A model generated the notes under the pieces. It worked only from the letters and a program-made list of their open reading frames with translations. It had not been told where the DNA came from and searched no databases. DNA of 64,000 nucleotides from Trileptium ribeirensis. Its lineage: Eukaryota > Nematoda > Enoplea > Enoplida > Thoracostomopsidae. Made by a program: the position numbers and the translations under genes. Below, one piece after another: positions 26,767 through 62,827 of this stretch (position 1 is its first letter; each line of letters begins with the position of its first letter). Location: the NCBI GenBank assembly GCA_030248225.1, contig JASANE010010001.1, forward strand, positions 58,769-122,768. Reading direction: 5' to 3'.

Positions 26767-27302
26767 TGGTATTAGATGTAATATACTTTAATACACTATA
26801 GAATACACTACAGCCACGAATACTTATGAAGCCTGAAATAATAAGTGTACATAAAAACACTAATGTAATGTTGGTTGACTTGGGAAAAGGGTGAGTTTAT
26901 GGTATGACTTGGGACATATTTGTCCCAACTCACACCACACAGTCACCGAATTAAAGTAACCTCGGCTATAGCTATAGGCTAGTAATCACTGGGAACAATA
27001 ATTCGCCCGTATATATCCGAAACCTTTACGGACTGAAATAACAGAAAGTTGTAGCTTCGTGCATACTCAAAAATCCACACAACATAAAAATTTTTACATC
27101 TACGTCTAAGCCAATGTTTTCGTATTCAAGAAAACGACTCATAATTTTCCTGTAAAATGTTTTGATAGATTTAAAACTGTTTCATAGAACACATTGCTCG
27201 ATTATGTTGCTAAATGACCCCTAAAATGAATCTAACGGGTTTATGGTGTTGAAGTGCAGGTTCCCGGAAAAAATGCCAAAGTTTGTCCCAAGTCATCCCA
27301 TG

Positions 27303-27326: not shown

Positions 27327-27331
27327 TATAT

Positions 27332-30311
27332 TGAGAGATAGCGATTTTGTCGCTATCCAATCGGGGAAGCTCTTTCAACGCCCACTTTTTTGAGTTCAAA
27401 CCCGGGCGCCCAATCGAAAAATTCCCAATATTTTGATTTTGACAGCTATCGTAAACCCTGGGTCCAAAGGTAAAGAGAGTCGGCTTCAATCGAAATCGCC
27501 GACATCAAATTTGAACCCTCCGAATACTCGGAGATCGACCATCTGTGAGTTTTCTCCCAAAATCTCAGATCTTACCCCATCTGCATTCCCAAATTCTTGT
27601 CAGAAACTTATTCAGAATCTATTACTCAGAGCTTTTAAACCTCTTACCTAACTTAGATCAGTCGTTATTCCCCAACTGTCCTACAAAAACGGTTAAATCA
27701 CCCGTCAAATTTAAAATTTCAAAGCTAAGTTCGGTGTGTTAGCATGCTTGGAGTACGCTGGAATCTGTCTTTTCCGTGTTCTTATCCGCATCCATCAAAT
27801 TTTCCCCCAGCTAACTCGCTTACTTAAAGCCAAATCTCTGCTATTTAGCGAGTTAGCTGCCTCATCCATCACCTAATTAAGCTTAACAAGAGTCCATCTG
27901 GGGTTAAATCTTGTCGCCCTGTCCATGGATAAACGTGCAAACATTGCACGTTTATATGTTGGCTTACAAGATAAAGCCAAACATTCCTAACATTCCTAGC
28001 TAAATTTCAAATATCCCGACAGGACGTCTTTGGACGTCCCGAAGGGGGGGAAGCCGAAGGCAGGAACGTGCTCATCTCGTGTTCTGGGGCGCAGCACATT
28101 CCTATGTATCTTTTGACCTATCGGGGGTCCCATTTAGGAACTCCCAGGGTGCACGGGAGGGCCCTAAACATGCCCCCCGTCTTTCCTAGTCCTATGCGTC
28201 CAGTCCGTCCGTAAAACTCATGAATTTAACAGAGTTTTACACGTGCGTCCTCATCTGTCCTGTTTTTTGTCATGTCCCTACATACTAGATATATATATAG
28301 ATATATATATATACATACATATATGCACAAATACATACATACAATACTCATGAACACATACACACACTACACAGGAGACACACAGGCGACCTGAGCGACA
28401 GAAAGGTCGCTCAAGTCCATACTAGAAACACGCAGAACCACAACAACAACCACGACACACACACATACACACACAAGGCGACAACGACAACGGCGACAAC
28501 CGACCAAAGAAGTCGGTTAGAGAGAGTGAAAAAGGAAAATAAACAACGGAAAAGAAAGGGCACGGGAAGGGAGTCGGGACAGGGGTTCCCGAGGGAATTT
28601 CAAGGGGCTGAGGAGAAATTCGGTCCCAGGACGAAGAACGGGGCCGAACGATACCAAACACGAGGGGGTAGACGCAGTGGCGGGTTGGGACCCAATTTTG
28701 GGTTCCGACATGTATTAACATACAGGGTTTTAGCGGGCTTTCCCGCTCTAACGGTGGGGCGGAGCAACGCCCGCCGGGCATCGTTGAACTCACCGTGTAA
28801 AGGCGGTTCAAACGACGGGTGTTTTCCCTGCCTTACCGGCAGCGGGTAGTGGGGCACTAAAATCACGACTAATAAGGAGAGTGTCGGTAAAAAGGGGGGC
28901 GCATTTTCGGCCGTCCCGGGTTAACGGGGCGACTGACGGAGACCCGCCGGGCATCTTTGAAGATCTCTCGACATGGCGAATGCGATGAGGGGCGTTTTGC
29001 CTACTTTTGAGTTAGGAATAAATTTTCGGTTGGTTTGTACCCACAAGCAATCGGCGTGCCAAATTGGGGGCACTTTGGCGGGTTACAACGGGCTGACGAG
29101 AAGTCGGACATCGTTGTACTCGCCCATAGCAGGCGAGTAGAATGAGGGGTCGCATGAGCCTATTTAGGGCCTAGGGTGAACTACGAACTTGGCACAAACT
29201 GACAGAGTTTTATGTTGAATTTCCGTGGTATGGCATAAAACAGGGAAGTGAGTGATATAGCAGCGGGATGACTGGTCGGATCGAGGCCCGTGTAGCCTCG
29301 CCAGATGCCTAGGTGGGTAGATGACTTGGAAACGCGTGTACTTTCACTCGCTGATCCGATGGTAACCAGAAAAGACCAGTTGTTAGTATGGTGGTCAAGC
29401 AATTTAGGGCGTCAAAGGATGCTATAAAAGAAAGGTTTTGATACGGTGGGGCGGAAAAATAAGCACACCGAGTCGCGAAGGTTACGCAGTACACATATAT
29501 ATGCATAACTATATTTCCATATGAACCTAGGTTATGTCCACTCGGAAGCATGGTCACCAGCCAAACCTAGCGTAAGTATCGGCTGTTAATTTGGATTTTC
29601 TCCTACTTGTCCCTAGAATATCTCAGGAGATCCTCCAGCGATTCGTGATGTTTTGGGCTCGTTCGAAAGCCCGAAAAATTCTCTACCGAAACGTACTCGG
29701 GGCATTTTCGGTAAATCTGAACCGTTGGACGGTTACGGGCCGACAAACAGGCCCGAGGTCCGTTATTTCCGAATAATCGGAAACTACCGTAACCCACTTG
29801 TTTCAGCCTACTTTTGCAACCATTAAGCTATGGTTTACTTTGAACCAGGTAAAATTGGGAGTCTCGATTTCGATCACTTTCCGACCCCCTTAAATTGTCA
29901 AAGGCCTCCTATTCCCGGACGGTCTAAATTTTGAAGTCTCAATGGGGGAATAGGGAGGAGTAGTCGAGTTCCGTCCAAATCCCCTATCTTAGCGCCAGTT
30001 AAAGGCTCTCTCCGGTTCTCTTCTAAATTTGTACCTTTGCCGTAGTCACGCGTCCTGGGTACCTGAGTGACTCCGTCCCACATGATATACAATCATTATA
30101 AAACATGCAAAGGCATAAAAATAATGGCAAACACACGTTTATAACAAAGACAGCAATATTACCAAAGCAATTACCAATGACCATGGCGCTCGGCAACACA
30201 TGAAAACTTAGTTCCGGTGACTGTGTCTGGTTCGATTTAAGGCGCGTTTAGGCCATCTTGACGTCGAAATCCTGTAAGATACACGTAACGGGCCGGAACG
30301 GGCCTGTTACA
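27332..30311 (-). repeat. 3' LTR of element A
   Basis: On the element's strand it starts TGTAACAGGCCCGTT and ends ATCTCTCA. It aligns along its whole length with 50,866-53,859, with scattered substitutions and short indels (for example an extra GGCCGGAACG just before the end at 30,301, and a changed stretch near 27,468). A purine-containing run (AAAAATATAAGAGA on the element strand) sits directly outside at 30,312 and may be the polypurine tract. Frames predicted inside the LTR have no recognisable product. Confidence 0.93.
28393..28412. promoter_or_regulatory. Conserved LTR hairpin, left LTR of element A
   Basis: GAGCGAC (28,393-28,399) pairs with GTCGCTC (28,406-28,412). The same hairpin is in the right LTR (51,931-51,950) and in the diverged LTR of element B (55,100-55,119), where its surroundings differ. 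Conservation suggests a cis-acting role in the LTR transcript, such as termination or processing; this is inference. Confidence 0.5.
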
Positions 30312-30906: not shown

Positions 30907-32040
30907 TTATTCCCAATTGTTGGTTGCTAGGCTCTGTTGGATCCACGTATGGAAATATCCGAGATAGGGTTCGGTAATGTGTGGCTCCGCAAGTTTGGCA
31001 CCGTCCGTACTATTTTCCCACGCTCCCGATTCGTTCAGTTCGGGTGGGTAGTCGGGCATCGACGACTTCTGCATCCTGTCGGGGAACTGCCATTTTATGT
31101 CCTGGAGTAGTTGAGTGAATTTGTCGTGCCATTCAGTGGTGTTGTCTTGTCCAATGTCCCAATGTGGCGGGGGCGGGGCAATGATTGCTCGGGCTTCATC
31201 ACTGAGTAGGTAGTCGAATGAACAGATATATCGGCGCACTCGACGCATAACTTTGCTGTGCGTGTCCAGCAAACGACCTTCGTGCGGCTTCGATCGTACG
31301 GCCGTTTTATATCCACCAAGGATTATGACTGTCTTGGTCTGTGGCGTGGCGATGCACGTCGCCAGCCGGACTAGAAATTGCATGGTGGCTCCTGGCCACG
31401 CCAGGGCGAACCACCCTTTCGAAGCGGCCATGTTGACCAAGGGCGCTGCTAACGAATCGCCCAAAATCAAGATAGTTGGCCATGAGGCGGCGTTATGGCG
31501 AAGGAATAATCGAACCTCCTCCAATAGGCGACCCATAACATTGTGGCATGGTCGCGGTTGTTTGCCGAAAGAGATGTCGTCCGGCCCTAGGCCAATTCCC
31601 CAGAATGAATCGGATCTGTTCGCCTCGAGCAATTGGGTGAATCCGGCGGCTAGTAGGGCGTCCCTGAACCGAGGAATCTTGAATTTCTCCAGTAGCACCG
31701 TCCGCATAAGGTGAGGGAGTACTGGGCGGAGGCGCTCGGTTGTTTCCGGGTCCAGGAACTTTTGCTTGTTCCTACGGCAGATGGCTTTGATGTCTCGAGC
31801 TCCCATTTTCAAGTCCGAAATGTCCTGTCTCGCCTGTTCCTCGTCGAATAAATAGGTGACGAGGAGATGGTATCCTTGCTCCGTTGAGGCATACTCGATG
31901 GGATACTGATTTATTGTCTGGCCCAAGGGAGCCATGTTTGAGAGTTCCGGCCAGTGTGTGCCTTTGGACAGGAACGTTTCAATCGGCGCACCATAGTTAA
32001 TGGTGTAGTACGGCACCCGAGGTTGCGGAAGTTGTTCCAT
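30907..32040 (-). CDS. NADAR (YbiA-like) domain fused to GDSL/SGNH-like domain
   Basis: An intact 377-residue frame, the last ORF before the 3' LTR. Residues about 20-160 show the NADAR/DUF1768 pattern: WPELSNMAPL (FLSN-like), YASTEQGYHLL (the P-S-V-E-H-x-Y-Q-like helix with Glu54), an ARDIKAICRR region, and the closing AGFTQLLEANRSDSFWGIGL. In characterised NADAR proteins this fold acts on ADP-ribose-type N-glycosidic bonds (YbiA on riboflavin intermediates; others on ADP-ribosylated guanine). Residues about 185-310 look like an SGNH/GDSL hydrolase: TILILGDSLAAP (block I, Ser196), WPGAT (block II), VIILGGYKTA (block III, lacking the usual Asn) and HWD or WHDKF near 293-306. The missing Asn makes hydrolase activity uncertain. 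Presence as an ORF of a retroelement is inferred from its place inside the LTRs and its strand. The function in the element is unknown. Confidence 0.72.
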   Translation of the reverse strand: MEQLPQPRVPYYTINYGAPIETFLSKGTHWPELSNMAPLGQTINQYPIEYASTEQGYHLLVTYLFDEEQARQDISDLKMGARDIKAICRRNKQKFLDPETTERLRPVLPHLMRTVLLEKFKIPRFRDALLAAGFTQLLEANRSDSFWGIGLGPDDISFGKQPRPCHNVMGRLLEEVRLFLRHNAASWPTILILGDSLAAPLVNMAASKGWFALAWPGATMQFLVRLATCIATPQTKTVIILGGYKTAVRSKPHEGRLLDTHSKVMRRVRRYICSFDYLLSDEARAIIAPPPPHWDIGQDNTTEWHDKFTQLLQDIKWQFPDRMQKSSMPDYPPELNESGAWENSTDGAKLAEPHITEPYLGYFHTWIQQSLATNNWE

Positions 32041-32162
32041 GTCGTTGAATTTCTTGAATTAGCGATTCCTGCAATAGTATTCATCGCCATTAGTGGCGGC
32101 TCTTGAGGGAGTTTGGTGGCGGGAGCTTGAGTTTTCTGGGGTGTTTTCGAGTGGTTTAGGCG

Positions 32163-32723
32163 TTACAACCGTCTCCCGCGAGGCGGTTGTCTAGGAGGTC
32201 GGACTACTTCCAGTCCGACATCGTCAGGTCGTAATTGTCTTTGTCCACTATCCTCGTCAGGTTCCAAGTCCGGATGTGCGGATAACATGTCTTCGATGTC
32301 CTGTTCGTCGAATATATCCCTACAAGGTTCAAACATGTCGTGCCGTGCACGAGCACTACCAGATGGATAATCCATCGGCATAACAGGGTCACGATGTCGA
32401 GTCGGTGGAGCGAGGGGTATAGTCCGTCGAGCTTGTGTGGCAACTTGGGGTTTTAACCGTCGGGTGTCAAGGTGTGGTATTATGACTCGAGCTTCTTCTC
32501 CGTGTGGTAAATAGTCTTCATACCAGCGACAACGGTCCCTGGCTTGTCTATGTGGTTGTCGGCGGGTAGGTTGAGGGGTTTCTTCCCTCTCTTTAACTTC
32601 AGGTGCAGAGGGTCCCATCTCAGGAGATCCCTCGCTCTCCTCCGTTGAAGGGTCAAGCTCAAAGTGGGGCCTTCGACTAGGTCCTGGTAGAAGTTGACTT
32701 CTTCTTCTTCTTCTTCTTCTCAC
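32163..32723 (-). CDS. Arg-rich accessory ORF of element A, unknown function
   Basis: 186 residues, starting MRRRRRRRSQ from an (AGA)n run at 32,697-32,720. It is proline-, arginine- and acid-rich (EESEGSPEMGPSAPEVKEREE), with a hydrophobic-poor acidic centre (DIFDEQDIEDMLSAHPDLE) and a basic end (RPPRQPPRGRRL). No domain is recognised; the composition suggests a disordered nucleic-acid-binding or regulatory protein. It lies between the integrase tail and the NADAR ORF and may be a separate product or the end of the integrase tail after a frame change. The start is uncertain because the AGA run can slip. Confidence 0.45.
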   Translation of the reverse strand: MRRRRRRRSQLLPGPSRRPHFELDPSTEESEGSPEMGPSAPEVKEREETPQPTRRQPHRQARDRCRWYEDYLPHGEEARVIIPHLDTRRLKPQVATQARRTIPLAPPTRHRDPVMPMDYPSGSARARHDMFEPCRDIFDEQDIEDMLSAHPDLEPDEDSGQRQLRPDDVGLEVVRPPRQPPRGRRL

Positions 32724-32778
32724 CGTTTGTCGCCCTTATGGGCATGGTGTAACCTGAATTGGTGGGGTTGTTGTGGTT

Positions 32779-33015
32779 TCACTGTTGACCGCGTCCACCG
32801 CATGACTTCTGATGACGTGACATATTTGTCGCGCTTTTCATTTGTAGGCACAGCTCGCATTGCTTCAGTTTCGGTTGATACTTTCGGGCGGTCGGTGGTC
32901 TCGCTGTTACTGCGGTATCAGTTGCCGTTATTTCTGAAGTTGCAGCTGTCGGGGTGGCAGCGTTTTTTCGAAGGCTGCACCTTTCTTTGTAGAAGTTGAC
33001 TAAGAGGCACTTCAT
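32779..33015 (-). CDS. C2HC-type zinc finger piece, end of integrase tail in a shifted frame
   Basis: A short frame overlapping the end of the long integrase frame by about 100 bases. It contains CELCLQMKSATNMSRHQKSC, a plausible C-x2-C...H-x4-C zinc finger, and ends at 32,779. The integrase frame stops at 32,918 just as this frame opens. It is probably the true C-terminus displaced by a frame change near 32,950-33,010, but an independent product cannot be excluded. Confidence 0.4.
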   Translation of the reverse strand: MKCLLVNFYKERCSLRKNAATPTAATSEITATDTAVTARPPTARKYQPKLKQCELCLQMKSATNMSRHQKSCGGRGQQ

Positions 33016-36000
33016 CCTCCTCGTCTTCCCAACTAACTTGTGATTGAGCTCTGGCTGGGGTCTGTTTACGTGGTTTAGCGCGTGATGGTCGAGTTAGGAC
33101 TCCCTTGAGGGTGGAGGGAGCGCTACGCGGCGGCGCTCTTCCCTTCCTCCCGGTAGAGAAGCCCTTGGTTGACTCGCCAATGGTTGATGTTGTCTCATTG
33201 TCCTTGTCTGCAGTCTGTGGTCGTAATCGTTTCGGTCGACCGCCTTCCGAAGACTCGGAAGGTCGGCGTTGTTTACTTGTGCTCTGCTTACTTGTTTCTC
33301 GTTGTCGAGCTAAACTTTCAATAAATTCTTCTACAATCCCATCAGCTGCTATTTGGTCTTCCGAAGGGATGTATTGTATGGGAGATCCCCTTAAGTACTC
33401 CATTAGTTCAGTCACATCTTGTATCTCTCCTCGGGCGCGGGCGGTTTCCTCTCTTTTTCTCCGTATTTCTTGAATTTCCCATTCCCATTGTACTAGTTCG
33501 TTCTGTCTTCGGGTGGTCCATCGACCGAAGGATGGTTCCTGCGGAACTTTGGTTCCTCGTTCCTGCAAGGGCGATAATAGGGGTGGCACCACCCACCGTT
33601 GAGGTGGTGTCGGAAAGTCGGTTGTTTCAGGTGAGGTAGTCTCCGAGCTTATGGATGACGCTGGTCCCCTGGTCGGCGCGGAAGTCTTAGTTGGCTTTCG
33701 TCGTGGTTTAGGCTTAGGTTTCGGTGTTGGTGCAGGTTCTAGCGGAGGTTGGCTACTTGCTGCAGCGGATTCCGCGGGTTGTGGTCTAGGAGGGGTGTGA
33801 TATGGTGTGAGCCATTCTTCTGGAACATAGTCCTCTATTGTGGCTTCGAATCCTCGGGGCATTAGAGGTGTATGTGGCAGTGGTGTAGGTGGGGCGGAGT
33901 ATGCCTGACGAGGTATGGAATAGGGTTGTTCATAAGACGCGGTAGGCTCATAATAGGTGTGGTATGGTGTCACTGGCTTGTCTGATTCAGTCACTAAGCG
34001 TTGCGTCTGGGGGCTGCGGGATGTTTGAGTGGCGATTGCGGCTCGGCGTTGGGCAGGCGTAAGCGGCGAGGTTTGTACGACATGTTCAACTGCTGAGGTC
34101 GGAGATGCAGCTTGTTCTGGAGTGTGTGGCGAGTGTTCGTCCGGATCCTGCGAAGCGAGTAACTCTACGAGACCTAGGTCATTGACATTGAATGGTCGCA
34201 GTGCGCGTCCGTTGTCTGAGCGCTTCACCTTTAGAGGCCTTGTAGGCTCGTCAGTCCGCACTGCTCGTTCCGGTTCCCGTAGAGTTACTGGGGCGGTGTG
34301 TTGTCCATACACAGGCGAGAAAGTGCCAGGTGGTTTATCAAGCGCGTAAGGCAAGTTAGCGGGGTCCTGGGTGGCGAGTTCCTGTGATATAGCGGGCCAT
34401 TCGGTGTCTGGGGTTCTGTCAGGGTCACAAAGGGGGAGCCTATTTTGTTGCGGGGCTCCGAATGAGCCTTGAGCCTGAATGGTCAGCTGTTCAACTGCGG
34501 CGCGATGTATGTCTGCCTGCGCTTGCGTGTATTCTAAATTAGGCTCTCCAATTTCTACACTAGCGACGTCGGAAGCACCATCAATCTCCTGGCGCAACCG
34601 GTCGACTGCTTCTGGATCGGCAGCCTGTAATTCCCTAGCGAAGTATTTATCAGCGAGGATAGTTTCTCCGGGTTCCTGTAGTGCAGCCTCAATGTATGCG
34701 GGAGGGACTGCTTTAAGTAAATCGGCCATGTCGGGGAAGCTGCTTAACGGGCGATAGCATGGTTTGGTGCGATTTATGTGAACGACGTTGTCGGATGCAT
34801 TAGGTTGTCCAGGGAGTTTAACGCAGATGCAGGGGAGCATTATTTTAGTGATTTGATATGGTCCACACCATCGGCGTTCTAGTTTGCGCGATAATCCTGG
34901 TGTGGTGTAGTATCGATACACCCATACATGGTCATTAACACGATAGTCTGGGACCTTGATCTTACGATTGTAATAGCGTTTTCGGTATTCCCTAGCGGAT
35001 TGCATGGACCGATAGGCTCGATCCCTAATGGTGGCTAACCACCGTTGCACGTTAGCGCGATATGCTTCTGCTCCGGGGTAGCGTCCCCAATCCGTCTGTG
35101 TTTCGATTCCACCCGGTACACGGGGTTGGAATCCGTGCATGAGCATGAATGGCGGATAGTGCGTGGAAGCGTGTACTGCTGAATTGTAGGACATGATGCA
35201 ATACGGCAGGACTTCGTCCCATGTAGTATGGTCCTTTTCGGGCAGTGCTACTCTTAGGAGAAATAGTAGTGTGCGGTTAAAGCGTTCGATTTCTCCGTTC
35301 GCCTTCGGGTTATAGCTGAGCGTTTCGCGTTTAAACGTATGTAGCCTAGCGCACAAGGCTTCCATTACTTCCGAGACGAAGCATCCACCTCGATCTGAGA
35401 CTAGCTCCTCGGGTGCCCCGTAGCGGCACACCACATCTTCGACGAAGACCTTGGCCACACTCTTAGCGGTTTGGTCCGGCAAAGCAGCGGCAATTACTAG
35501 CTTCGTGAATTGATCGATAAAGGCTATTACGTACCTATTTCCGTTTCGGGATAGCACCCGAGTGTCCAGTATGTCGACAAACATGCGATGCATGGGTGCA
35601 CTAGCCAACGGGTTCTCTCCGAGCGCGGCTCGAACATTTTGTGGTAGATTGCGTGATCGCTGGCAAAGTACACATCGCTTAACGTACTCGTCCACGTCCT
35701 TACCCATGGTTTCCCAATAATAGAATTGCTTGAGTTTGCTCAGCAGACGATCTCTACCTGCATGTCCACCGAACAATGTGTCGTGTTCGTGTTTAAGTAT
35801 TTGTCGTATGAGCAGTCTGGGTACGCATAGTTTAGGTCTATGGTCGTTTGGCATGATAGGGTGTAGGTATAGAATGGCAGTGTCAGGACAGAGTCTGTAA
35901 TGGTGGGCTTCTCGTTTTAGAGTGGTCGCTGCCTTTTCATCGGTTGGTAACTGTCGCGTGTGCAGATACCACCAAATAGGGCCAAATTGTTTGTCTCTAC

Positions 36001-36190
36001 GTTGAATGTATGGTATGTAATTAAGGAGATTCCTCCCCTCGTATTGCTGAAAGTGCGGTAAATATATGTGTTCTCCGGTGTCATGGACCTGTTCGGGGCG
36101 TTGTAGTTGTATTCGTGGTCCGCATGCGTAAGCAACCCTAATTAAAGTGTCGAATTCCTCTACTTCTGGTAAGCCTCCATATCTCTGTCG
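32918..36190 (-). CDS. Integrase of element A with very long C-terminal tail
   Basis: The frame is open from about 36,190; the ATG at 35,854 is internal. Counting from that ATG: zinc-binding HHCC (His24, His31 in GGHAGRD, Cys61 and Cys64 in CVLCQ), then the catalytic triad Asp94 (FVDILD), Asp154 (VSDRGGCF) and Glu190 (NGEIERFNRTL), with 35 residues between the last two. A GPY/F-type module follows near 328 (RRWCGPYQITKI). This is a complete Gypsy-type integrase core that joins cDNA to the host genome. The remaining approximately 590 residues form a tail rich in Pro, Thr, Ser, Gln and charged residues, with basic clusters (GGRPKRLRPQ) near the end, far longer than normal. Its start is out of frame with the RNase H/linker frame upstream. 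Confidence 0.87.
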   Translation of the reverse strand, partial: RQRYGGLPEVEEFDTLIRVAYACGPRIQLQRPEQVHDTGEHIYLPHFQQYEGRNLLNYIPYIQRRDKQFGPIWWYLHTRQLPTDEKAATTLKREAHHYRLCPDTAILYLHPIMPNDHRPKLCVPRLLIRQILKHEHDTLFGGHAGRDRLLSKLKQFYYWETMGKDVDEYVKRCVLCQRSRNLPQNVRAALGENPLASAPMHRMFVDILDTRVLSRNGNRYVIAFIDQFTKLVIAAALPDQTAKSVAKVFVEDVVCRYGAPEELVSDRGGCFVSEVMEALCARLHTFKRETLSYNPKANGEIERFNRTLLFLLRVALPEKDHTTWDEVLPYCIMSYNSAVHASTHYPPFMLMHGFQPRVPGGIETQTDWGRYPGAEAYRANVQRWLATIRDRAYRSMQSAREYRKRYYNRKIKVPDYRVNDHVWVYRYYTTPGLSRKLERRWCGPYQITKIMLPCICVKLPGQPNASDNVVHINRTKPCYRPLSSFPDMADLLKAVPPAYIEAALQEPGETILADKYFARELQAADPEAVDRLRQEIDGASDVASVEIGEPNLEYTQAQADIHRAAVEQLTIQAQGSFGAPQQNRLPLCDPDRTPDTEWPAISQELATQDPANLPYALDKPPGTFSPVYGQHTAPVTLREPERAVRTDEPTRPLKVKRSDNGRALRPFNVNDLGLVELLASQDPDEHSPHTPEQAASPTSAVEHVVQTSPLTPAQRRAAIATQTSRSPQTQRLVTESDKPVTPYHTYYEPTASYEQPYSIPRQAYSAPPTPLPHTPLMPRGFEATIEDYVPEEWLTPYHTPPRPQPAESAAASSQPPLEPAPTPKPKPKPRRKPTKTSAPTRGPASSISSETTSPETTDFPTPPQRWVVPPLLSPLQERGTKVPQEPSFGRWTTRRQNELVQWEWEIQEIRRKREETARARGEIQDVTELMEYLRGSPIQYIPSEDQIAADGIVEEFIESLARQRETSKQSTSKQRRPSESSEGGRPKRLRPQTADKDNETTSTIGESTKGFSTGRKGRAPPRSAPSTLKGVLTRPSRAKPRKQTPARAQSQVSWEDEEDEVPLSQLLQRKVQPSKKRCHPDSCNFRNNGN

Positions 36191-36957
36191 AGCAGTTGTC
36201 GGTAGCGTGCATGGTCGAGCGGGTTCAGGTGTGCCGGCCGTGGCACGGGTGAACTCTCACTCGCTGCAATAGGAGCGGGCGGTGTCGGAGCGGTCGGGGG
36301 TTCCTGAGGCTGCGGGGGTTTGGCGGGTGGTTCGGGTGCTGAAGGGGGTCCAGGGGTCGGTTCACCAGTGGGTTCTGGCGGTCCTGGGGCAGTTGTCCGT
36401 CTCCCGGGTACCTCGACTCCTTCAGGCCTTGGGTCGTCTACGTCTCCACAGAAGATGAAACGTGCCGGGTCCGGTAGGGGGTCATAACCAGGTGCTCCGA
36501 ACATACGATAGAAACGTTCTCTGACGTACTCGGGTGGTAGGGTAACAGGAGCGGCCGGTGGGAGTCCCATGAGTTGTCGAGTAAGTCGTTTCCAGACTTC
36601 CTCAGTGGGAAATCGACGAGGCGGTTTAGCTGGGGTTTTGCCTTTACCACGATCCTGTCTTTTAACGGCTACAGCAACCATTCGAGGATGGTCCTGTTCG
36701 TCGCATTCAGCTTCGTCCGAAGAGTAAGAAAATTCCACGTCATGTCGGGGATCGCGTGAAAGTCCGTCTGCATTGGCATTAGCCTTACCTGGTCTATATT
36801 CAATGTTGAAACCACCGAACTCCATCAGTAATTCGTTACGCCATTGAGCTAGTCGCGAGTTTCGCGGCGGTCTCTGTTGAAGTGGTGGTCGGAGTGTAAG
36901 GAGATGTGGAAGAGTCAGTATGGCGGATCGGTGCCGGGTCAGGGAGGATGTACTCAT
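36160..36957 (-). pseudogene. RNase H C-terminal remnant plus Pro-rich linker
   Basis: Residues 35-68 of this frame (about 36,855-36,753) match the end of a Gypsy RNase H domain: RLAQWRNELLMEFGG, then NIEYRPGKANANADGLSR. The catalytic RNase H residues upstream are missing because the RT frame is joined almost directly to this point by a deletion. After the domain comes about 195 residues of linker, acidic then strongly proline-rich (PGPPEPTGEPTPGPPSAPEP), ending with a stop at 36,160. Integrase follows in a different frame, so one more frame change lies near 36,160-36,200. Confidence 0.82.
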
Positions 36958-37870
36958 ACTGTCCGTGGACAGTGACGAAGGAGGTTTTCTCCTTGGTCTC
37001 GGGGTCCAGTTCTAATTGCCAGAAACCTTTGTTAAGATCCAAACTGGACATGAATTTGGTGTTTCTGAGACAGCCTAATATGTCATCTATGCGGGGTAAC
37101 GGGTACAAGTCGCGTTCGGCAACTACGTTGAGCTTACGGAAATCAACACACAAGCGTAAGGTACCGTCACTCTTGGTGACGTAAATGATGGGAGAGCCCC
37201 AAGGTGAATCTGACGGCGTTATAAGGCTTGCTTCTACCATATTGTTTAATTCCTCACGCAAGGGCTCCCTTAATGAATGTGCTAGGCGATAGGGTACCTG
37301 TTTAATGGGCCTTGCGTCTCCAGTAACGATCCTGTGCTGGTGCACACCACATCTGCCTAGATCAAACGGGTGTACACTAAATATATCTGCATTCTCAGAG
37401 ATAGTCGTTTTCAATTGTTTAAGTTCGAAAGGGTTTAGGGTCGTTTGTCCAAAGTCAATTTTGCTCAAGACCTGTATGGATCGCTCTGTGTCGATTGTCT
37501 TCTTTGGTTCACTTATAATTTGGACAACGTTGTCTCGTGTAACGCCGATGTTGTTGCATTGCTTAGTGCGTCTTGGAGGGTCAAGTTGTAACAAACGCTT
37601 GTTACTGTCATATAAGAACTCGACCTCGTTATCTTCAAGCATCTCAATATGTCCGATTGTTTGTCCGGCGTGTATAGCGACGGGAAAGTTCCCAAAGTTC
37701 ATTAGTGCTATTGGTATCATGCGTTGTCCAGTAAGTACCAGAGAGTGAGCAATAGCAATGTCCCTGATGAAAGGGTCAGGCACAAATAAGGCTTGACCTG
37801 TCGGTGGTTGAGTGATTTCCGGGATGGCGTTGATAAATAACTCTGTGTACTTGAGTGTATTTTCTGGTTA
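36836..37870 (-). pseudogene. Reverse transcriptase, truncated before the YxDD motif
   Basis: Open from about 37,870 on the minus strand. The RT-specific motifs present are LITPSDSPWGSPIIYVTKSD, LRLCVDFRKLN, YPLPRIDDIL and the motif-A catalytic Asp in SSLDLNKGFWQLELD, then KTSFVTVHGQYEY. At about 36,945 the homology stops abruptly and the sequence goes into RNase H C-terminal code. The rest of the palm with the YxDD pair, thumb, connection and most of RNase H are absent, a loss of roughly 1 kb compared with intact Gypsy elements. The protease frame ends at 37,776 and overlaps this one by a +1 shift. No polymerase activity is possible from this copy. Confidence 0.9.
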
Positions 37871-38650
37871 CCACGTTGATAACCGGTGGTCTATAATCCC
37901 CTTGGTCGGCGAAAGGTGCCGAGCAATTTTCGGTTCCGTTGGATAGGTCCAGGCAACGATCTTTGAAGTTGATGGCGACATAAGGTAATAATGCCATGAA
38001 GTCAGTGCCTAAAATGCATTCGTACGGTGTATCTGTTGTTACCTGAAAGTCACACGGTGTGCTTGACGATCCTATTGTGATCGGCGCTTTCACTACTCCG
38101 CTGATGGTCAGTTCTTGTTGTGTAGCCGATACTATCCGAGTAGTGTTCGTGTCACGAGGGACCAGTCCTAAACGGGCAGCTAGGGCTTGGGACATGATTG
38201 AGACGTCAGCTCCAGTGTCTACAAGGGTCATAACTGGGGTACCAAGTATGGTTGCATTAACAAGTAGTGGAGTGTTGCCTGCATTCATCGTGTTTAATTG
38301 TCTAGTGAACACACCTTGACGAGGTCCACGGCGTAAGTCGCGAGTGGGAGCGACAAATAGTTCGTCGTCCTCGATAAAGACAAGTTCTTCCTCGGATGAG
38401 TTGCGTGATGTCAATAGTCTGTTCGAACGACGTGGGGCACGGCTAGACGCGACGGACACGCGCGGCGTTCTCGAAGGCCCAACCGTGACCTCAGTGGGTG
38501 AAGTCCTATCTGAATGGGGAAAGTTGTCTTCCGCGGGTGGAGCACTCGGTAATCGGGGTTTCGCTCTAGTCCATCGAATCACTTTCCTAGGCTTGCTATC
38601 GGTCCTAATTAATCGTCCACGACATGGGAACCATCGGGGAATGTAGTGTC
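37776..38650 (-). CDS. Retropepsin (aspartic protease), continuous with env tail
   Basis: The same open frame that encodes the env transmembrane segment continues through a basic/serine-rich spacer and an acidic patch (SSEEELVFIEDDELF) into a retropepsin domain of about 115 residues (about 38,276-37,929). Its marks are LLVNATILGTPVMTLVDTGA with the catalytic Asp-Thr-Gly, ADVSIMSQALAARLGL, and the second hydrophobic-Gly strand CILGTDFMALLPY. A viral protease of this kind cleaves gag and pol polyproteins. There is no stop or start between the env membrane anchor and the protease. Protease is therefore either made as an Env-Pro fusion, from a spliced RNA, or from an internal start. Confidence 0.87.
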
Positions 38651-40504
38651 CGTACTTAGGCGGAAGCTTACACTTGGTCATGAAATAGATCAAACTAATC
38701 AGTCCTACAGCGCCGGTAATGATGAAATAGGGCAAGAATCCCGTATATTCCACAGCGGGAAGATTAACCACGCTACGTACTTGATCCTTAGCTATCTGCG
38801 CGACCCGCAAATTGATAGCCTTGGCATTGTCGAGTGAGTCCCAAGTCAGGGGTCTCAGTTTGGTACCGGATAGCCGGTCGATAGTGACATTTGGTCCGAA
38901 TTTTATTGTAATCTTCTCGGGTTTCAACATGCTAGTAAGCACTATTGACCCTATGACTAACTGAGTGTAGTTTCCGTGCGGAAACCACAAAACTCCATTA
39001 GGTGGAACTTTTATTGTCTTACCCATTGTCACGTGAGCTAGCTGTCGTCGGTTCGTCAGTATAACCTCGGGTTCCCTAATCCGAATTAGTACACCTTGTA
39101 TAGTTGTGTGTACGGACGTGTCATTGGCAAGTGGACCTATCAATGAGCGGTTGCTACATGTGTGCTTAATGGTCTCAGGCACATGTTCGCCTGCAATAAT
39201 ACATTCCAAGCAATGAGTGCTATGATCAGTTATCAGCGCGTGTGGCTCACAAAAAGCGATTCCTGGTCTTTGCTTGCGAGCTCCTAGATTTAGTGATTCG
39301 AAGGGAATGTGCCCCAAGCGGGCAGCGTATTGGGGGAGCGGCAATCTCAATTGCGTTAGCGTGGCAGGTGCATTCCAGCCGGTGTTATAAATCCGAAAAT
39401 AGGGTCGTACGTCATTGCGCATCGGCAATGGTAACTGTAAAATAAATCCAAAGCGGAATGCGGTTAAATCCACGCTCACAGGCATGACGCGACCAAACTG
39501 ATAGGCGAGACTAGGCTCGCGCATGAGGATAGTCTTGGAAATGCGTGGGCCCATGGAAAATAACCGTCGTAACATGACGACATCGATAACGGCGGGAGAT
39601 AGTTCGCCGTTCAGCATGGATTCCATTATAGCTTGTACCGACGAGCGCATATTGGCTCGAAGGATGTGGTGTATTAGCTGGTGGTGCACATGCGCGATCT
39701 CTTTCTGATCAGCACACCTAATCTGTTCGATCATAGAGACTACCTGTTGCATGCTGTGGTGTAGAAACGCGTAGATGTCCTCGTTAGCTCGGGTCAGTTG
39801 CCTAATGGCTTTGGTGTTTCGGAACGAGACATCGTTTGTCTCACGCATGAATTTCTCGAGGACAGTTACCTGCTGACGCACATTGTTAATTTGGAAAACG
39901 CCATTCCCAGGCCCAAGAAACCTGAGACGGCACCTGCAGCGGCAGCGATTAGGCTGGCAAAGCGTTTCTCCCTTTTATGTGTGAGATCACACAATTGCTC
40001 GTTTGCGACGCAAAAAGAATGCACAAGTAGCGAATAGTAATTGGTGTCCAGTACACCATGATAAGCGTCATCCAGCTCGCGTTCCAAAGCTCTTAAGGTC
40101 TCATATAGCTGTGGATATTTGGTGCAGTTAATCTTTCGACAACAATCAGCACGACACGATCCGTTTGCTTCGTAGGGTGGGCAGAATTCACTCACGTAAG
40201 GATCAGACTTGCGTTCCCAATCGCGAAGTGATAACTGCAACACCACCGGCAAATGCGTTGTTTGGTCAGAGGTGACCACCAAGCCCTGTGGCTCGATGAC
40301 CACTCCTACTTGGCGATTGACAAAAGCACCTAAGCGTGAGATTGAGTCGCTAAATGGCGAGAGCGTTGCGCGTGTTGAGCTAAGCGCTGAGAGCCAAAGT
40401 AATAATAGAATTGTACAGACCCTCCACATACCTGAAGGGTGTCCGAGGCCATTACTGAGGCTCGGCGAAGAGGGTCGTACCCCATTTCGGTTGGGTTCCC
40501 TCAT
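38650..40504 (-). pseudogene. env: Envelope-like fusion glycoprotein, frame-broken
   Basis: The frame opens at 40,504. The likely start is the Met at 40,429, directly before a signal peptide (CTILLLLWLSALSSTRA) and 22 bases after the stop of the preceding ORF. A short cysteine-containing N-terminal subunit with N-glycosylation sites (NGS, NCT) ends at a furin-type site KREKR (39,976-39,962). A fusion-peptide-like Ala/Gly-rich hydrophobic stretch follows at once (39,961-39,896), then a heptad-like helical region, about 400 residues of ectodomain with several Cys and NxT/S sites, and a transmembrane segment (38,741-38,672). The short-then-long subunit layout resembles baculovirus F and errantivirus envelopes. 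The frame changes near 39,880, just after the fusion peptide, so this copy encodes no complete Env. Homology is inferred from architecture. Confidence 0.78.
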
Positions 40505-43500
40505 GGTCTCTATTCACGATTTGTTCCGTAACGTCGCTTTTAGTTTCCTCGTCGCTCGTTTCCGTGTCACTCGGCTCAGTCATGCATTCTTGTTGAGCGG
40601 AATCACTATTGGAGTCATCCTCCGACTCCTCTTCAGATGAGTCGAGGTAAGCGGCTAAGGCCGTGGTTAACTGCTCGTCCAAATTCGGGACGGAACAGTT
40701 GGTGTCCTCGTCCGGAAACAAGTATAGTTCTGAAATTAGGCGATCCCTGCCCAATTTTAGTCCAACAGACGTGTTTCCCTCTGTCTCAAGCAGTCCTGCA
40801 ATGTCAGGGCGCCGCAGAAGTCTCAAGCGTGCGCTAAGCAGTACTAGTCGAGCAAGTCGGTGGGTTTCGTCAACGAATTCCATATTGCTCATTGCTTGGT
40901 CGACAAAGGAGTTAATCGGGACACCTCGCGTATGTTGGTTCTGGTAGATGAATTCGACCAGATAAGGCGCCTCACACAAGAGATCATGTAACTCGAGGTT
41001 CGCCTCGCGGAAAGTTTTCTGCATTCTGGCTGACTGAATTCCGACGTAGAAAGGCCAATGAGGTGCTATGTATCCATCCGGTAGGATGGACGCGCAAGCG
41101 GTGCTTAACGTACCATCGTAAGTCCACCTTCCTCGTTGACCGTAAAAGTAACAGCTTAAGCCTATGTCCCGCGAATCTCTTGTATGGCATTCCTTGCACT
41201 GTCGACACACAGGATCCCTACTCAACTCCAACTCGAATTCCCTCTCAACAACCTGTTGGAGCGTGTGGCCATTCACGCATTGGCCCACCAGATCGATGAA
41301 AGATTCCAACGAAGCGAGAGTTACAGGACCAAGGCACATTCCCGTTATGCAGTGCCCAATTGGAGAAGCCATACCTAATATACTGCTTAGCATTGCGGCG
41401 TCTCGCTGTAAAGTGGGGCGTGTGCTAACCTCGAAGCGGAGCTCAAACAGTCGGCTCAAATTGTTTAGCTGTTCCATTACGAGTATTACTCTCCGATAAA
41501 AGAGAGCTTGCGGTTGCAATGCCAAAGGTTGTCCGAAGTTAGCATTGATTTCACTAGCTCTAAAGTTAATTGGTATTAGTCCTTCAGTTGGCTCGTTACG
41601 CGCATCCTCAGTCAAGGCTATGCGAGTAAATTGGTAAGCTGCGGTCTCGGCATGGTCCGTAGACAGAGTGAACAATGTGTCAGTCCCAAGGATTCGGTTA
41701 CGTTCCTCGTCCGTCATCGCTCTAACTCGTCCAGGTTCTATCGGCATATTGTTGGGAAGACAAAGTCCAGACATGTCCAGTAATCGCTTGTCCAGTTGGT
41801 GTACGCGTTCGTCATTGACTTCTCGTATGTATTTAAGCAAATTCTCTTGTCCCATGCACGTGTCCGAGTCCTCGCTAGTCACACTCACTGATTCCTCCGA
41901 ATTACCCGGGGACATACATGGTCTCCCTTCGACGGATTCCTCAGTGGTCGTACCTATTTCGTCTGGGTTACCCGAATTACCCGAGGGCATACTAGGCGCC
42001 TCTTCGACGGGTCCCAGGATATCGCTGGAAATGTCGGCCAACGTATCAGTGGAGCTACCTAAATTACCCGGGCGCATACAAAGCGTCCCTTCGATAGGGT
42101 CTCCACTGAGGCTATCGACCAATGGATCCGAACTCAACTCTTGCACACTTCCCGTACCGATACTGCCACTATCGCTGCCTTCGCTTAGATCGCTTCCTCC
42201 GACAGCACCCTCTCCTTCCTCAGAGCGGATAGACAATTGACTGGCTCGCAGGCTTAAATCAATGCCATCATCTGATGGTGCACGCGGTAGTTCGTTGTTG
42301 TGTTCGCGACGTACCTCCCACACCCCTTCACTATGCCACTCTCGTGCGTCAGGGCTGGGTTCGCGTCGGTAGCAGTCGGCATTCGGATCCACCCAATTGG
42401 CCCAAAATTCCTCATCATCCAGCATGCCTTCCTCATCCATATCGTTGCACTCATCATAGCTATTATCGGGTTCGTCCGGTGCTGCAGTCACACGGAACCC
42501 AAGCTCATTCTCTGATTCATTTTCACCGTTATCACGCTCCTGCAGAGTACCCTGACTTAAATTACACACTTCCGCTTCGCTAATATAGTTCGCCTCGCTC
42601 GCCACGGATCCGTTTCGTTCCATTAGGAGTTCACCTGACTCCTTTAATCCAACAACTCCAACAAGTTCAACACACTCAGCGCTATCCTTCACGCTGACTT
42701 CATTACAAGATTCATTGAAAAAACTTAACTCATTGCAAGTCACGTCGTTGCGCGCTTCAGCGACGGTGGGCGCGACGGAAGCCTCACAATGCGATGGACA
42801 GTCTTTATTTGCCACCCTGCAATCTACATCCCCATACCTGGGCAGACCCCGGGCAATACTTTCAGGCCCAACGATCATACCCGCTTCATTGGCGCGAACG
42901 GCCGCGAACCCGTCGCTATCTCGGCTTGGGTACGGGTGACAAGGGCGGCCCCGGTCAGCATCAAGGAAGGACCCAATGACCGTGGAACCCCTTGCCAATG
43001 AGGTCGGGAAAGTCACCTCAAGTCCATCAGTAGCATATTTCGCCGGCTCGAAGTAGCATTCAATTACATCAACATCACTTCCATTATCATCTTCCAAAAA
43101 TTCACTAAGGCTACAAGCGCGTCCTAACTTAGGCAAATCAATACACTCATACGACACACAATTCTCACCAGCACACAAGGGACGACCCGCGCGGCGGTCC
43201 GGCCCACATACTACATCATACGACCTATAATTTAGAACGGAACTAGGGCTAGGCGGCCCTGATGAGACGTCCTCATCGTACAGCCTAGCCTCCCTCGTCC
43301 CTGGTCGTCCGCCGACCTCTAAAAACTCCATGTGTGCCTCACACGGCGACCCGAATAAATCCAATTCTTCCTGAGCCATATCAACATCATCGGCTTCCCT
43401 GCCGGAATCATCAACACCAACACTCTCAACACACGGATGGCCAGCCACAGAGGAGGAAAATAATAATAATGGCTCATCAACAACAACATCATCTTCACTC

Positions 43501-44106
43501 ACAGTCCCTGCAGTCATCTCCAAAGAGCTGGGGGTCCCGGAATTCCCCCTTGAGGTGATTCCCTGGGGAGTACCGGTAATAAATTCAACACTTCCCTTAT
43601 AATCCCTCAACCTATAATTTTGAACACAGCCGTCTTCCATTTCCTCACAAATTTCCATACTTCCATTACTATCCTCTGCTGCGGTTAGAGTTCGTGCGTT
43701 CATACCGAATCCACGCATGGCCGGGCAGTTCGATTGACTAGTCGACCGCTCGCCTCGCTCTTCGACACTTTCTTCGCTCGCTGATATATACACGTGGATC
43801 AGCACCTGCGCTAGGGGCGTCCACACATAACATAGACATTCCCTCTCCCACGTATCCCTCTTTTTGGTGTTTTATATTTTCTTTGCTATATACAGTGTTA
43901 GCAAGCTCAATTCCGTATTGTTCGTCGTCCAAGTCCCTAGGGCACAATTCCATAAGTCCGGGGATGTCCATACCCTGAACGAGATCACGGGTCCTTGGGA
44001 GACGCGCGGCATCAGCCCACGAAGTGGACGTGATCACGTTCAGGTGTCTCTCAACAAGTCCTTCCATAGTCTCAAAATCGTCCAAGTCATCGTGTCTGTT
44101 CAACAA
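40452..44106 (-). CDS. Large acidic ORF of element A, unknown function
   Basis: The main frame covers 43,826-40,452 (1,124 residues). A 123-residue frame upstream (44,106-43,738) overlaps its start in another frame and itself follows gag after an in-frame TAG. The N-terminal two thirds is very acidic and Ser/Gly-rich, without recognisable fold and with imperfect repeats of (G/S)NSG/GNLGSS-type and MxPGN words (about 42,100-41,880). The C-terminal third (about 41,780-40,640) is globular-looking, helix-rich and has a cysteine cluster (DPVCRQCKECHTRD, LSCYFYGQRGRWTYDG). The end is again acidic. No family is recognised. It sits where nothing is usual in Gypsy elements, between gag and env, and could be a structural or transcription-related accessory protein. 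Confidence 0.6.
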
Positions 44107-45897: not shown

Positions 45898-47344
45898 TTA
45901 CTCGATTATCTTTCTTCGGCGTCCGGGTATATCAAGTGGGATCTGGTTTAGGTATTGTCAAGAATAGTGGTTAAACGGGCGTTTAGCTTCAACAAAACTC
46001 AGCGAAGCGACAAGCGTTATTAGTCTTTTTTGACGGTCAAATTTGAGGTACTTAAACTTACTCTGCCCAATAGAATAACAGAGAAATAAACCGCGCAAAT
46101 GAGTTGTCAGTAGGAAACTCAACGGTCCTAGTAGGCAAGAGAATCAAACTCTGCAAGAACGATCGTGAAAATCACTTCAGAATAATCAATTGTAGAGCGG
46201 CGCTTCGACGCTACGCTACTATACTATAGGAGCAAAACACAATACCCAAAAGCTGTTATACTACTGCCACAAAAGTATGCAATTGCTAAGCTAGGACACA
46301 CAAAGATGTTAATAAAAGCACAGCAAGTTAAAGTATAATAAAACTGAACAATATTTACAATGTCCACAGCCAATGTTCACGTATCTTCCAACCAGAGCGT
46401 CCACTGATCGAAACCGATTCCCGGAGCGGAAAGGCGAAGCGTAATTGTCACCGAGTAGCAGTACGCGATGTTTCACCAGGCAGCCGGTATACGTAACGTC
46501 AATAGTACGAATCACGTCGCTAGTTCTGACACAGTCCGAGCAGCAAAGTTAGGGCACGCGTTACCAGTGAACGGGATATAGGGCAAGGCGATGTCTGTCG
46601 ATTCGCAAATATCTGACAAGTCCCAACGGCGCAGTGGTCGTGTTAGTGTTCAGTGTCAGCGATAGTTAGTCCCAAGTCGACGAATAAAATGGCGACGGTA
46701 AAGTGAGTCGTCGGTATAAATAGTCGTAAGCAGAATTACGAGGCCAATGTAAGGAAACGTCGAAGCAATACCAACGGGATCAAATAATAGTCGCGCAGCG
46801 AAGTTTATATAGTATGATACGTGTTAACAGATTAGTTAGTTAGTTTAAGTCACGTAACCAAAACGATACCTGAAACAGTGCCCGTTGGTTACCTGGTCTG
46901 GGGCGTTCACGTAACACGGTACGCCTAGTAAAGTCGCGGGTTACCGCCCGAGTCGGTATAAAGTTCGCAGGTTAACATCATTGAACGCAGAACGAGGCAA
47001 GGGCAAATGTACACACATGGGCACAAAATAAAATAACGCAAAACAATGGCAGAGACACACAAGATACACCACCGTTCTCTTGCGAGAGGTCCGTACAAAA
47101 ATAGAAATCGAACTTATGTGGGGGTGTCAGCAAAATTTTTGGGCATTCCTACAAGCAATGATAGTCCCCAATATCAACTAAACGAACTGGGCGCCGCAAG
47201 CAAATCGTCTCACGGCGAGCGGGATGGACGAAGAAAGTTAACCTCACTTCGTGGGGGTTGAACGGAAATTTCGACGCCTCACGGCGTAGCCCCCAACGAT
47301 GTAATAACGGTGACGTAGCTGCATGGCGCAACTTCCTAACACCA

Positions 47345-47620
47345 TGCCCGTACGACCCCGGCTATCATAACCTCAAGGGCGGACCCTAAGTTTTCCATTT
47401 TAGTCGCTTTTCTTGGTCAGACCCAAGAAGTTACGGAGCTTAGCAGGCCGCAGGCGCGCTTCACGGGGTGTGTTCGGACCCCGCCCGATTGGTTGCGCAC
47501 GTGTCTAGTATCCTGGTATGATTACTGAGGTCCCCCAGGGAGGTTGACACCGAAACCTGCTCACAGGTCATAATGTCAAACCGATATTCCCTGTCCTAAT
47601 CTAATGGAAGTTGATTTTTC
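47345..47620 (+). repeat. Module shared with 57.07-57.30 kb, possibly 5S-rRNA-like
   Basis: This stretch aligns in direct orientation with 57,070-57,300: ATGCCCG..ACCCCGGCTA, GGTCAGACC, GAGCTTAGCAGGC, GTGTTCGG, CACGTGTCTAGT, TGGTATG, GAGGTCCCCC, CCTGCTCACAGGT and ATTCCCT. Elements A and B, in which the two copies sit, point in opposite directions, so the module is inverted relative to one of them. A faint resemblance to the middle of eukaryotic 5S rRNA (GGTC.GACC..GAAGTTA...AGCAG) is visible, but it is too weak to call it an RNA gene. Confidence 0.5.
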
Positions 47621-49193
47621 TAGCGTAAACTGAAGTAAAATGCGTGATAAGTTTAGTTTCGCCATGTAAATTTTGGGTTCTGCTGAGTTATCCTTAGCCG
47701 AACACTTTGTCTGTTGTAGCCATGTGGCCCCCACAGGGTTCCGACATGCCCTGAAATGTTTAACGTCGGACTATCTCTTTTGTAATACGGTAACTTGACT
47801 GTGTTAATGTCTAGTGATAAGGTGTTCCTATTAAATTTTGTCTCCGGTGCGAGTGCAACCATTAAACGAGTGAGTTTGACTATTAATTTCGAGGACCATT
47901 CTCGCTGCAAGGTCATTACACAACTATGTCAATATTGGTGGCGAACCGCTCGTGTCAGGGCTTGGGGTATTTGCGTCCGCAAGCCGTGGCACGAAGGGTT
48001 GGCCTGTCTAGTAGGACACACTTATAACGCTGAGAATTCAACAACACGGGACGCGTCAGCTGATTTCAAGAGTTTATTTAGTCATATATACAGTATCAGC
48101 AAGTAATGGGCAAGCAGGGTCATATACGATACAATACGATCTCGACGACAACACTTTATCACTCCGGTCGTTGATTCACTTGTCTATTGCTGGAAGGGGA
48201 GCGGGGCGGCAGGAGCGACGACGTTCCCGGCAATGCCGGGCCAGAATCTATGCCCGAGACGTTTACTGATTAGCTGCAACGAACTCAGTCACGACGCGGG
48301 TCGGGCGTTCTGGCGTGCTTCGGAATTCGCTCTTACTAGCGCGCGGCGTTATACACAAAAAGAGATGTTTCGTTTCTTTCGTCAAAAGGCAGGACTCGGG
48401 GTACGAGAAAGCACAGAGTCTCCGGCGCAAGATAAAACATGGTCGTATTGTCGAAACCAACTATTATACAAATCATTCCACAGTCAAGAACAAATGGTCA
48501 CCTATGGTACAAGTGAACGAAGGTTAACAGTACTCAGTTTACAATAAGCGATGTGCCTACTCGGTCGTCAGATGTGGAAGTTCGGTTCGTCTGCATTCTT
48601 TTGTCCTACAAAATGCCTAACATCCTTATCGAGTATCCCACAACGTTTCGCCCTCGTGACGGGTCATGTGCAAATTGCTAATAGTCTCAGCATCTCCAGC
48701 ACTTCAAGCGGAAGCTCGCGGAAGCTCAGTTGGCTCGAGTCCTCAAAGTTCATTTATGGTTGACTTCCAACGGCGGGGGTGAACTTTAGTGGTGGAGGAA
48801 TAGTTAAGCTACGTAATAAGTATCGAGGACGCCGTTTTGATCACGTTAATGGGGTCGCCCTTAGCCACTGTTCAACGATCCTAATAAGAGTATGCCTAGG
48901 CAATTGCCATCCTCAACGATCTACCAGGCGATCATCATCGCTGTCCTAGCCGTTTCAAGCGGGTGAGCGTGTCTACTCGACGATCTTGGCTAAGGTCGCA
49001 CTCTGGGGTGCGTTTAGGGTTGAGTCATGGGGCGGACGCTTCCGCGTCCCTTTTGGTTGGCGTTTCTCTGGGGTTTTTCTTTCTTTTCCCCCTTTTTCTG
49101 CTTTGTTTCCCTTTTGTTTGTTTCCTTTGCTTCCTTTGCTGTTGTTCTCGTCTTTTGTGTTCACTCTCTCTATCTTATCCTATTGCCTTATTT

Positions 49194-49253
49194 CACTGTA
49201 CACGTTGAAATTGTACAGTGTCTCAACTGCACTATCGAAATTGTGCAGTTGAG
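49194..49253. other. Twin perfect stem-loops in the element A leader
   Basis: Stem 1 is CACTGTACA (49,194-49,202) with TGTACAGTG (49,212-49,220). Stem 2 is CTCAACTGCAC (49,222-49,232) with GTGCAGTTGAG (49,243-49,253). Both loops contain GAAAT, while the stem sequences differ and remain perfectly paired. This looks like a duplicated RNA structure maintained by compensating change. Confidence 0.72.
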
Positions 49254-49278
49254 TTATTACTGAAATTTTAATAAATTT

Positions 49279-49357
49279 GGTCAGACCTCGATGGTCGAGT
49301 GGTTAAAACCTAGAGATCTGCAGCGGACTTAAATCCTCCGTGCAGGATCGAAACTCA
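49279..49357 (+). ncRNA. tRNA-like (class II) sequence, degenerate
   Basis: A-box-like TGGTCGAGTGG (49,292-49,302) and B-box-like GGATCGAAACTC (49,345-49,356) are at the spacing of a tRNA with a long variable arm; GGACTTAAATCC (49,325-49,336) could form that arm. The acceptor and anticodon stems do not close, so it is not a functional tRNA. It may be the head of a SINE or a tRNA pseudogene. Confidence 0.4.
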
Positions 49358-62825: not shown

Positions 62826-62827
62826 AT

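What the first reader, a model, noticed from the sequence alone, without database searches (positions are those of the whole stretch)
37776..40504. Env located between gag and pol, with the Env tail continuous with the protease
Seen: on one strand, inside one pair of LTRs, a glycoprotein-like unit (signal peptide, furin site KREKR, fusion-peptide-like stretch, transmembrane segment) precedes retropepsin, RT and integrase. The frame runs without stop from the membrane anchor (38,741-38,672) into the Asp-Thr-Gly of the protease (about 38,217). Known: errantiviruses and retroviruses place env after pol. Inference: this lineage expresses an Env-Pro(-Pol) polyprotein or uses splicing to start Pro-Pol, an expression strategy I do not know from described Gypsy elements.
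Basis: partly seen in the sequence, partly recalled or inferred. Interest (0 to 1): 0.88.

Follow-up and report, generated by a model that had tools for sequence, protein, structure and literature searches.

The report
Retroelement with mid-polyprotein envelope gene
A giant virus-like jumping gene, found in many related copies in one genome, carries its envelope-like protein in the middle of one huge protein chain instead of at the end, a rare layout reported before in flatworm elements called Burro.

Summary
On the minus strand, inside LTRs 27327-30294 and 50861-53852, lies a 26.5-kb Ty3/Gypsy element in the order gag, ORF2, env-like glycoprotein, protease, RT, RNase H, integrase, NADAR ORF. 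Membrane anchor and protease share one 732-codon frame. This copy is damaged: the glycoprotein lies in two frames, about 0.7 kb of RT/RNase H is missing, gag has a stop.

It is no one-off rearrangement. The env-protease stretch recurs at 39 other scored places in the same genome (88-91% identity). In pieces of 20 of these, ORF2-env-protease keep order in 20 and the whole order through integrase in 17. Env reads in one frame in 15 of 20; ORF2-Env-PR-RT-IN is one open frame of 3,300 codons in 4 of 20; gag joins ORF2 in frame in 7 of 9. Env and the Env-protease linker show purifying selection. The window's frame changes are local decay; the family most likely encodes one polyprotein of about 4,700 codons.

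New here: a NADAR accessory ORF, different mid-region content, and evidence of selection.

The parts
50861..53852 (-). 5' LTR (edges by BLAST; true ends may lie a few bases away)
45898..50860 (-). leader of about 5 kb without an ORF of 150 codons
43738..45897 (-). gag with CCHC zinc knuckle, interrupted by an in-frame stop at 45232; frame runs on to 43738
40452..43871 (-). ORF2, 1139 codons, net negative charge, no Pfam family; in frame with gag and env in other copies
39866..40513 (-). env-like N part: signal core, KREKR furin-like site, fusion-peptide-like span
37776..39974 (-). env-like C part with membrane anchor (38738-38682), linker, and protease (DTG at 38219), one frame
36836..37867 (-). 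spacer and N-terminal part of RT; cut by a deletion of about 0.7 kb
36160..37011 (-). end of RNase H (by eye and by match to other copies) and connection to integrase
32918..36256 (-). integrase (H2C2, rve) with long C-terminal extension
32163..32735 (-). 190-codon ORF; in the one other 3' piece read it continues the integrase extension in frame
30907..32058 (-). accessory ORF: NADAR domain (PF08719, E 6.8e-14) plus an SGNH-hydrolase-like half (by eye, no Pfam match)
27327..30294 (-). 3' LTR (edges by BLAST)

Best explanation
A degraded copy of a giant multicopy Ty3/Gypsy retroelement whose coding region is one polyprotein, Gag-ORF2-Env-PR-RT-RNaseH-IN-extension (about 4,700 codons), followed by a separate NADAR-containing ORF. 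Shown in pieces: gene order, shared frame, selection, and dozens of copies at least. Inferred mechanism: Gag and ORF2 are made in the cytosol; an internal signal sequence threads the Env ectodomain into the ER; the single anchor returns the chain to the cytosol, so that PR, RT and IN sit on the inner face, tethered to the Env tail. A furin-like protease cuts Env outside, and PR cuts itself and Pol free inside. Gag, Env and Pol would thus reach the same membrane as one chain, coupling Pol packaging to Env without a Gag-Pol frameshift.
For: 39 other scored places with the env-protease stretch at 88-91% identity. Order kept in 20 of 20 pieces for ORF2-envN-envC-PR and in 17 of 20 for all eight probes. 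All 13 frame anchors from ORF2 to integrase in one frame in 4 of 20, the same number open across the whole 9.9-kb piece; Env in one frame from signal to tail in 15 of 20, without any stop in 11 of 20; gag and ORF2 in one frame in 7 of the 9 gag-side pieces that hold gag, of 12 read. Ratio of third-position to mean first/second-position difference: 6.5 (Env N), 8.5 (Env C), 4.5 (anchor plus linker), 8.2 (PR), 9.5 (RT), 8.7 (IN), 3.3 (ORF2). Furin-like site 20 of 20, DTG 20 of 20, anchor 18 of 20, fusion-peptide-like motif 17 of 20; signal core at 1.9 or more on a 13-residue scale in 18 of 20. The closest solved RT is Ty3 (E about 1e-87). Precedent: Burro.
Against: No RNA or protein data: a shared frame permits, but does not prove, translation as one chain; splicing or internal starts could still be used, and there are Met codons just before the protease. 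16 of 20 pieces carry a stop or frame change somewhere. No copy was read end to end, so the total length is a sum of spacings from different copies, and the in-frame join of the integrase extension to the 190-ORF rests on one piece. The glycoprotein has no sequence or profile match to any known Env, and its structure model was unusable. On a 19-residue scale the signal core passes 1.6 in only 2 of 20.
Confidence: 0.8

Rival explanations
1. Same gene order, but separate expression: Env and Pro-Pol are made from spliced or internally initiated messages, and the common frame is a relic or a convenience.
For: Env begins with a signal-like core that would suit a separate start, and in the window copy a Met precedes it near the start of its frame; Met codons lie just before the protease. 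Retroviruses and errantiviruses make Env from another message (passages; general knowledge).
Against: The ORF2-Env and Env-PR joins stay open and in one frame in many copies, and the anchor-PR linker itself is under selection in that frame. This does not exclude additional spliced messages.
Confidence: 0.15
2. Rearrangement, nested insertion or misassembly put an env before pol in this copy only.
For: This copy has other damage: RT deletion, frame changes, a gag stop.
Against: The same order with near-identical spacing on 20 other contigs; 39 other scored places with the join intact at DNA level.
Confidence: 0.01
3. The glycoprotein is a membrane protein other than a fusogen, for example a capsid-membrane tether.
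For: No match to any Env family or solved fusion protein.
Against: Signal core, furin-like site directly before a hydrophobic glycine/alanine-rich span, a single C-terminal anchor and several N-glycosylation motifs, with furin site and anchor conserved in 20 and 18 of 20; the position equals that of the Env region of Burro.
Confidence: 0.12

Closest known systems
Burro giant Gypsy elements of planarians (Arkhipova and Yushenova 2019, PMC6431247, section 7 read; original report by Grohme 2018 not held)
   Same: Ty3/Gypsy, giant, one very long polyprotein (4,873 aa there; about 4,700 codons here, summed from pieces), CCHC Gag first, extra stretch between Gag and Env, Env in frame directly before PR, accessory ORFs
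   Different: No BCL2, MATH, BIR or ankyrin family found in ORF2 and no dUTPase between PR and RT by Pfam; a NADAR ORF follows the polyprotein; internal region about 20.6 kb against up to 25 kb; host unknown, its flanking DNA about 41-43% GC whereas S. mediterranea is over 70% A/T (PMC11410931 passage). No Burro sequence was available to compare
Errantiviruses (Drosophila gypsy group)
   Same: Ty3/Gypsy pol with an envelope glycoprotein
   Different: env is a third ORF downstream of gag and pol there (PMC12992720 passages); here in frame before PR
Bdelloid rotifer LTR elements TelKA, Vesta, Juno (PMC5408684, abstract and passages)
   Same: animal LTR elements with a captured env or GDSL/SGNH ORF
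   Different: these are ORF3 types; the passages describe no env between gag and pol
Ectocarpus Gypsy families with NADAR (PMC12477816 passages)
   Same: NADAR domain in a Gypsy element
   Different: [quoted passage not shown] here in a separate 3' ORF with an SGNH-like half

Membership tests
Ty3/Gypsy (Metaviridae) | PR-RT-RNase H-IN order and Ty3-like RT | tested here: met
Burro-like giant elements | env in frame between gag and PR | tested here: met
   that it is an env rests on anatomy and selection
Burro-like giant elements | single polyprotein of about 4,900 aa | tested here: inconclusive
   met in pieces: 3,300 codons open in 4 of 20 pieces, gag-ORF2 in frame in 7 of 9, integrase extension plus 190-ORF in frame in 1 of 1; no copy read end to end
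Burro-like giant elements | accessory domains (BCL2, MATH_TRAF, BIR, ankyrin and others) | tested here: not met
   no Pfam family in ORF2 of the window or in the ORF2 part of one other copy; more sensitive profile comparison not available
Burro-like giant elements | dUTPase-like domain between PR and RT | tested here: not met
   no Pfam match in the spacer of the window or of one other copy
Burro-like giant elements | sequence kinship with Burro RT or Env; planarian host | not testable with these tools
Errantivirus | env 3' of pol as a separate ORF | tested here: not met
Errantivirus | Env homologous to baculovirus F | tested here: inconclusive
   no Pfam or PDB sequence match; model unusable
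Retroviridae | gag-pol-env order | tested here: not met

The most novel reading that the evidence does not exclude
A lineage of infectious giant retroelements, possibly in a host outside planarians, makes Gag, Env and Pol as one membrane-threaded chain, in the manner of a flavivirus polyprotein, with the protease leashed to the Env tail so that assembly, Pol packaging and Env maturation become one event; it also carries a NADAR/SGNH enzyme that may remove ADP-ribose marks placed by the host.
Probability: 0.3. Interest if true: 0.78.

Novelty: new variant of a known kind. Interest (0 to 1): 0.58.

Why it matters
Retroviruses and errantiviruses commonly set the Gag to Pol ratio by frameshift or readthrough and make Env from another message (general knowledge). 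A selected polyprotein with Env in the middle breaks both rules and predicts equal synthesis and a membrane-tethered protease. In what I could read, this layout rested on a short passage about planarian Burro. Here it is seen in a family of dozens of scored copies, with measurable selection on Env and on the Env-protease junction, which makes the question of how such an element is expressed directly testable.

Tried and rejected
Rearrangement, nested insertion and misassembly: rejected by the copies. Programmed frameshifting at the window's frame changes: rejected, because other copies mostly keep one frame there. Codon-usage scoring to follow the frame was too weak to use; stop-free runs carried the signal. 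Protein database searches: env-protease, none of 7994 scored candidates at E <= 0.001; NADAR ORF, none of 3404 at E <= 0.01. Integrase: 97 relatives with the usual Gypsy domains listed and no NADAR among them. Of these 97, 19 match the protease; 2 of the 19 have a hydrophobic span before it, one of the 19 was not evaluated, and none was followed up. Scans of viral contigs found no relative. Structure models of Env C and ORF2 C: mean pLDDT 36 each, not used. Host identity: the COX1 search gave only two overlapping matches with internal stops. The three pieces that lack 3' probes and three gag-side pieces without gag were not followed up.

Literature: searches for env between gag and pol, env upstream of pol, and Burro with env showed no second case in their listings, but of those listings I opened only PMC6431247, PMC10309623 (Cer1; passages), PMC5408684 and PMC11410931. 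NADAR with retrotransposons or LTR: only PMC12477816 was opened. Chary and Hayashi 2025 and Grohme 2018 are not held and may say more, so no claim of absence from print is made.

Corrected on checking: a count of LTR substitutions included flanking columns and is replaced.

Full report
What is there. The window's minus strand carries a 26.5-kb LTR element: LTRs at 27327-30294 and 50861-53852, 96.8% identical, with 53 mismatches and 9 gap openings over 3001 columns. Between them lie, 5' to 3', a leader of about 5 kb without an ORF of 150 codons, gag with a CCHC knuckle, a 1139-codon acidic ORF2, a glycoprotein-like unit, retropepsin, part of RT, the end of RNase H, integrase with a long extension, a 190-codon ORF and a 383-codon ORF with a NADAR domain. 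I saw no target-site duplication at the edges (by eye).

The finding itself. The stop-free frame 39974-37776 runs through the C part of the glycoprotein, the anchor (38738-38682) and a linker to the protease DTG at 38219. Runs this long do not arise by chance here (200 shuffles, longest 334 codons; linker open in 20 of 5000 shuffles).

Other copies. The window lies in a 687-Mb assembly of 20,229 contigs. The env-protease stretch has 40 scored matches out of 638 first-look candidates; 39 are elsewhere, at 88-91% identity and nearly full length. I read pieces of 20 of these 39. ORF2, env N, env C and PR are present in order on one strand in 20 of 20; RT in 19 of 20; all eight probes through the integrase extension in 17 of 20. 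The distance from PR to integrase is 3,133-3,154 bases in 16 of the 17 and 2,895 in one, against 2,450 in the window, so the window lacks about 0.7 kb of RT/RNase H; the piece of another copy has complete RVT_1 and RNase H domains.

Frame. Relative to the protease, all 13 anchors from ORF2 to integrase share one frame in 4 of 20 copies; three more that lack 3' anchors show one frame over all anchors that they have; the other 13 show scattered frame changes or split matches, and none of the window's three changes is general. The same number, 4 of 20, is open over the whole 9.9-kb piece, 3,300 codons, from within ORF2 to the integrase extension. Env reads in one frame from signal to tail in 15 of 20, without any stop in 11 of 20. 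The gag anchors were found in 9 of 12 gag-side pieces, and gag and ORF2 share a frame in 7 of 9. In the single 3' piece read, the integrase extension and the 190-ORF are one open run of 561 codons, followed by a separate ORF with NADAR. Adding spacings gives about 4,700 codons; no copy was read end to end. The NADAR stretch has 39 other scored places (634 candidates); on all six contigs outside the window's own that both listings share it lies about 6.34 kb downstream of the env-protease stretch on the same strand. Gag has 39 other scored places (506 candidates). The listings are capped at 40, so copy number is a lower bound.

Selection. Across the 20 copies plus the window, pairwise differences at codon positions 1, 2, 3 were 4.5, 1.8, 20.4% in Env N and 3.9, 1.3, 22.4% in Env C, like PR (4.6, 1.4, 24.4), RT with spacer (3.9, 1.5, 25.6; 19 copies) and IN (4.1, 1.2, 23.1; 17 copies). 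The anchor plus linker gave 5.5, 3.5, 20.2, the ORF2 C half 7.7, 5.0, 21.1, and the integrase extension 4.2, 4.7, 23.6 (17 copies). These are raw pairwise counts without a tree, but the contrast is large: Env and its junction to PR were kept as protein while the family multiplied. Landmarks are conserved: furin-like site 20 of 20, DTG 20 of 20, anchor 18 of 20, fusion-peptide-like motif 17 of 20. The signal core reaches 1.9 or more on a 13-residue scale in 18 of 20; with 19 residues and a 1.6 cut-off only 2 of 20 pass, since the core is short.

How it probably works. The topology fits: an internal signal sequence, a lumenal ectodomain with a furin-like site, a single anchor followed by basic residues, then protease and Pol on the cytosolic side, where Gag and ORF2 also lie. 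Inferred: Gag, Env and Pol reach the membrane as one chain, which signal peptidase, a furin-like protease and the retropepsin then cut. PR cutting the Env tail would recall the activation of murine leukaemia virus Env by tail cleavage (recalled). The role of the NADAR ORF is open; NADAR proteins act in pathways of NAD and ADP-ribose (passage of PMC12477816).

Known or new. [quoted passage not shown] The layout here is the same. The window family lacks, by Pfam, the named Burro accessory domains and a dUTPase, and adds a NADAR ORF. Kinship with Burro could not be tested. The DNA around the element is 41-43% GC, unlike the A/T-rich S. mediterranea genome, which hints at another host but does not show it. 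I file it as a Burro-like variant, not as a member of Burro.

Limits. The glycoprotein has no sequence match to any known Env; that call rests on anatomy, on selection and on the position that it shares with the Env of Burro. There is no RNA or protein evidence. The window's own copy is certainly inactive as it stands: RT is deleted.

Noticed in passing
30907-32058 (-): NADAR domain (PF08719) joined to an SGNH-hydrolase-like half (by eye), a separate ORF downstream of integrase; recurs in the family.
   Followed up: partly
54535-56691: Fragments of a related element in the opposite orientation: LTR-like match (about 69-79%) and leader match (73%) to the main element; no match to its coding ORFs in the window.
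   Followed up: partly
32163-32918: The window has roughly 0.3 kb more than the one other 3' piece at the junction of the integrase extension and the 190-ORF, which splits the 190-ORF off.
   Followed up: partly
45898-50860: Leader of about 5 kb between 5' LTR and gag without an ORF of 150 codons.
   Followed up: no
24383-26787 and 19737-20333: Pogo/Tigger-like DNA transposon pieces on the minus strand: DDE_1 and HTH_psq domains in the first, a similar-looking N-terminal part in the second (by eye).
   Followed up: no
60271-62856: Degenerate tandem repeats with spacings of about 86-88 bases.
   Followed up: no
3197-3595 and 3656-5203: Two inverted-repeat structures, arms of 120 nt (83% complementary) and 167 nt (92%).
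   Followed up: no
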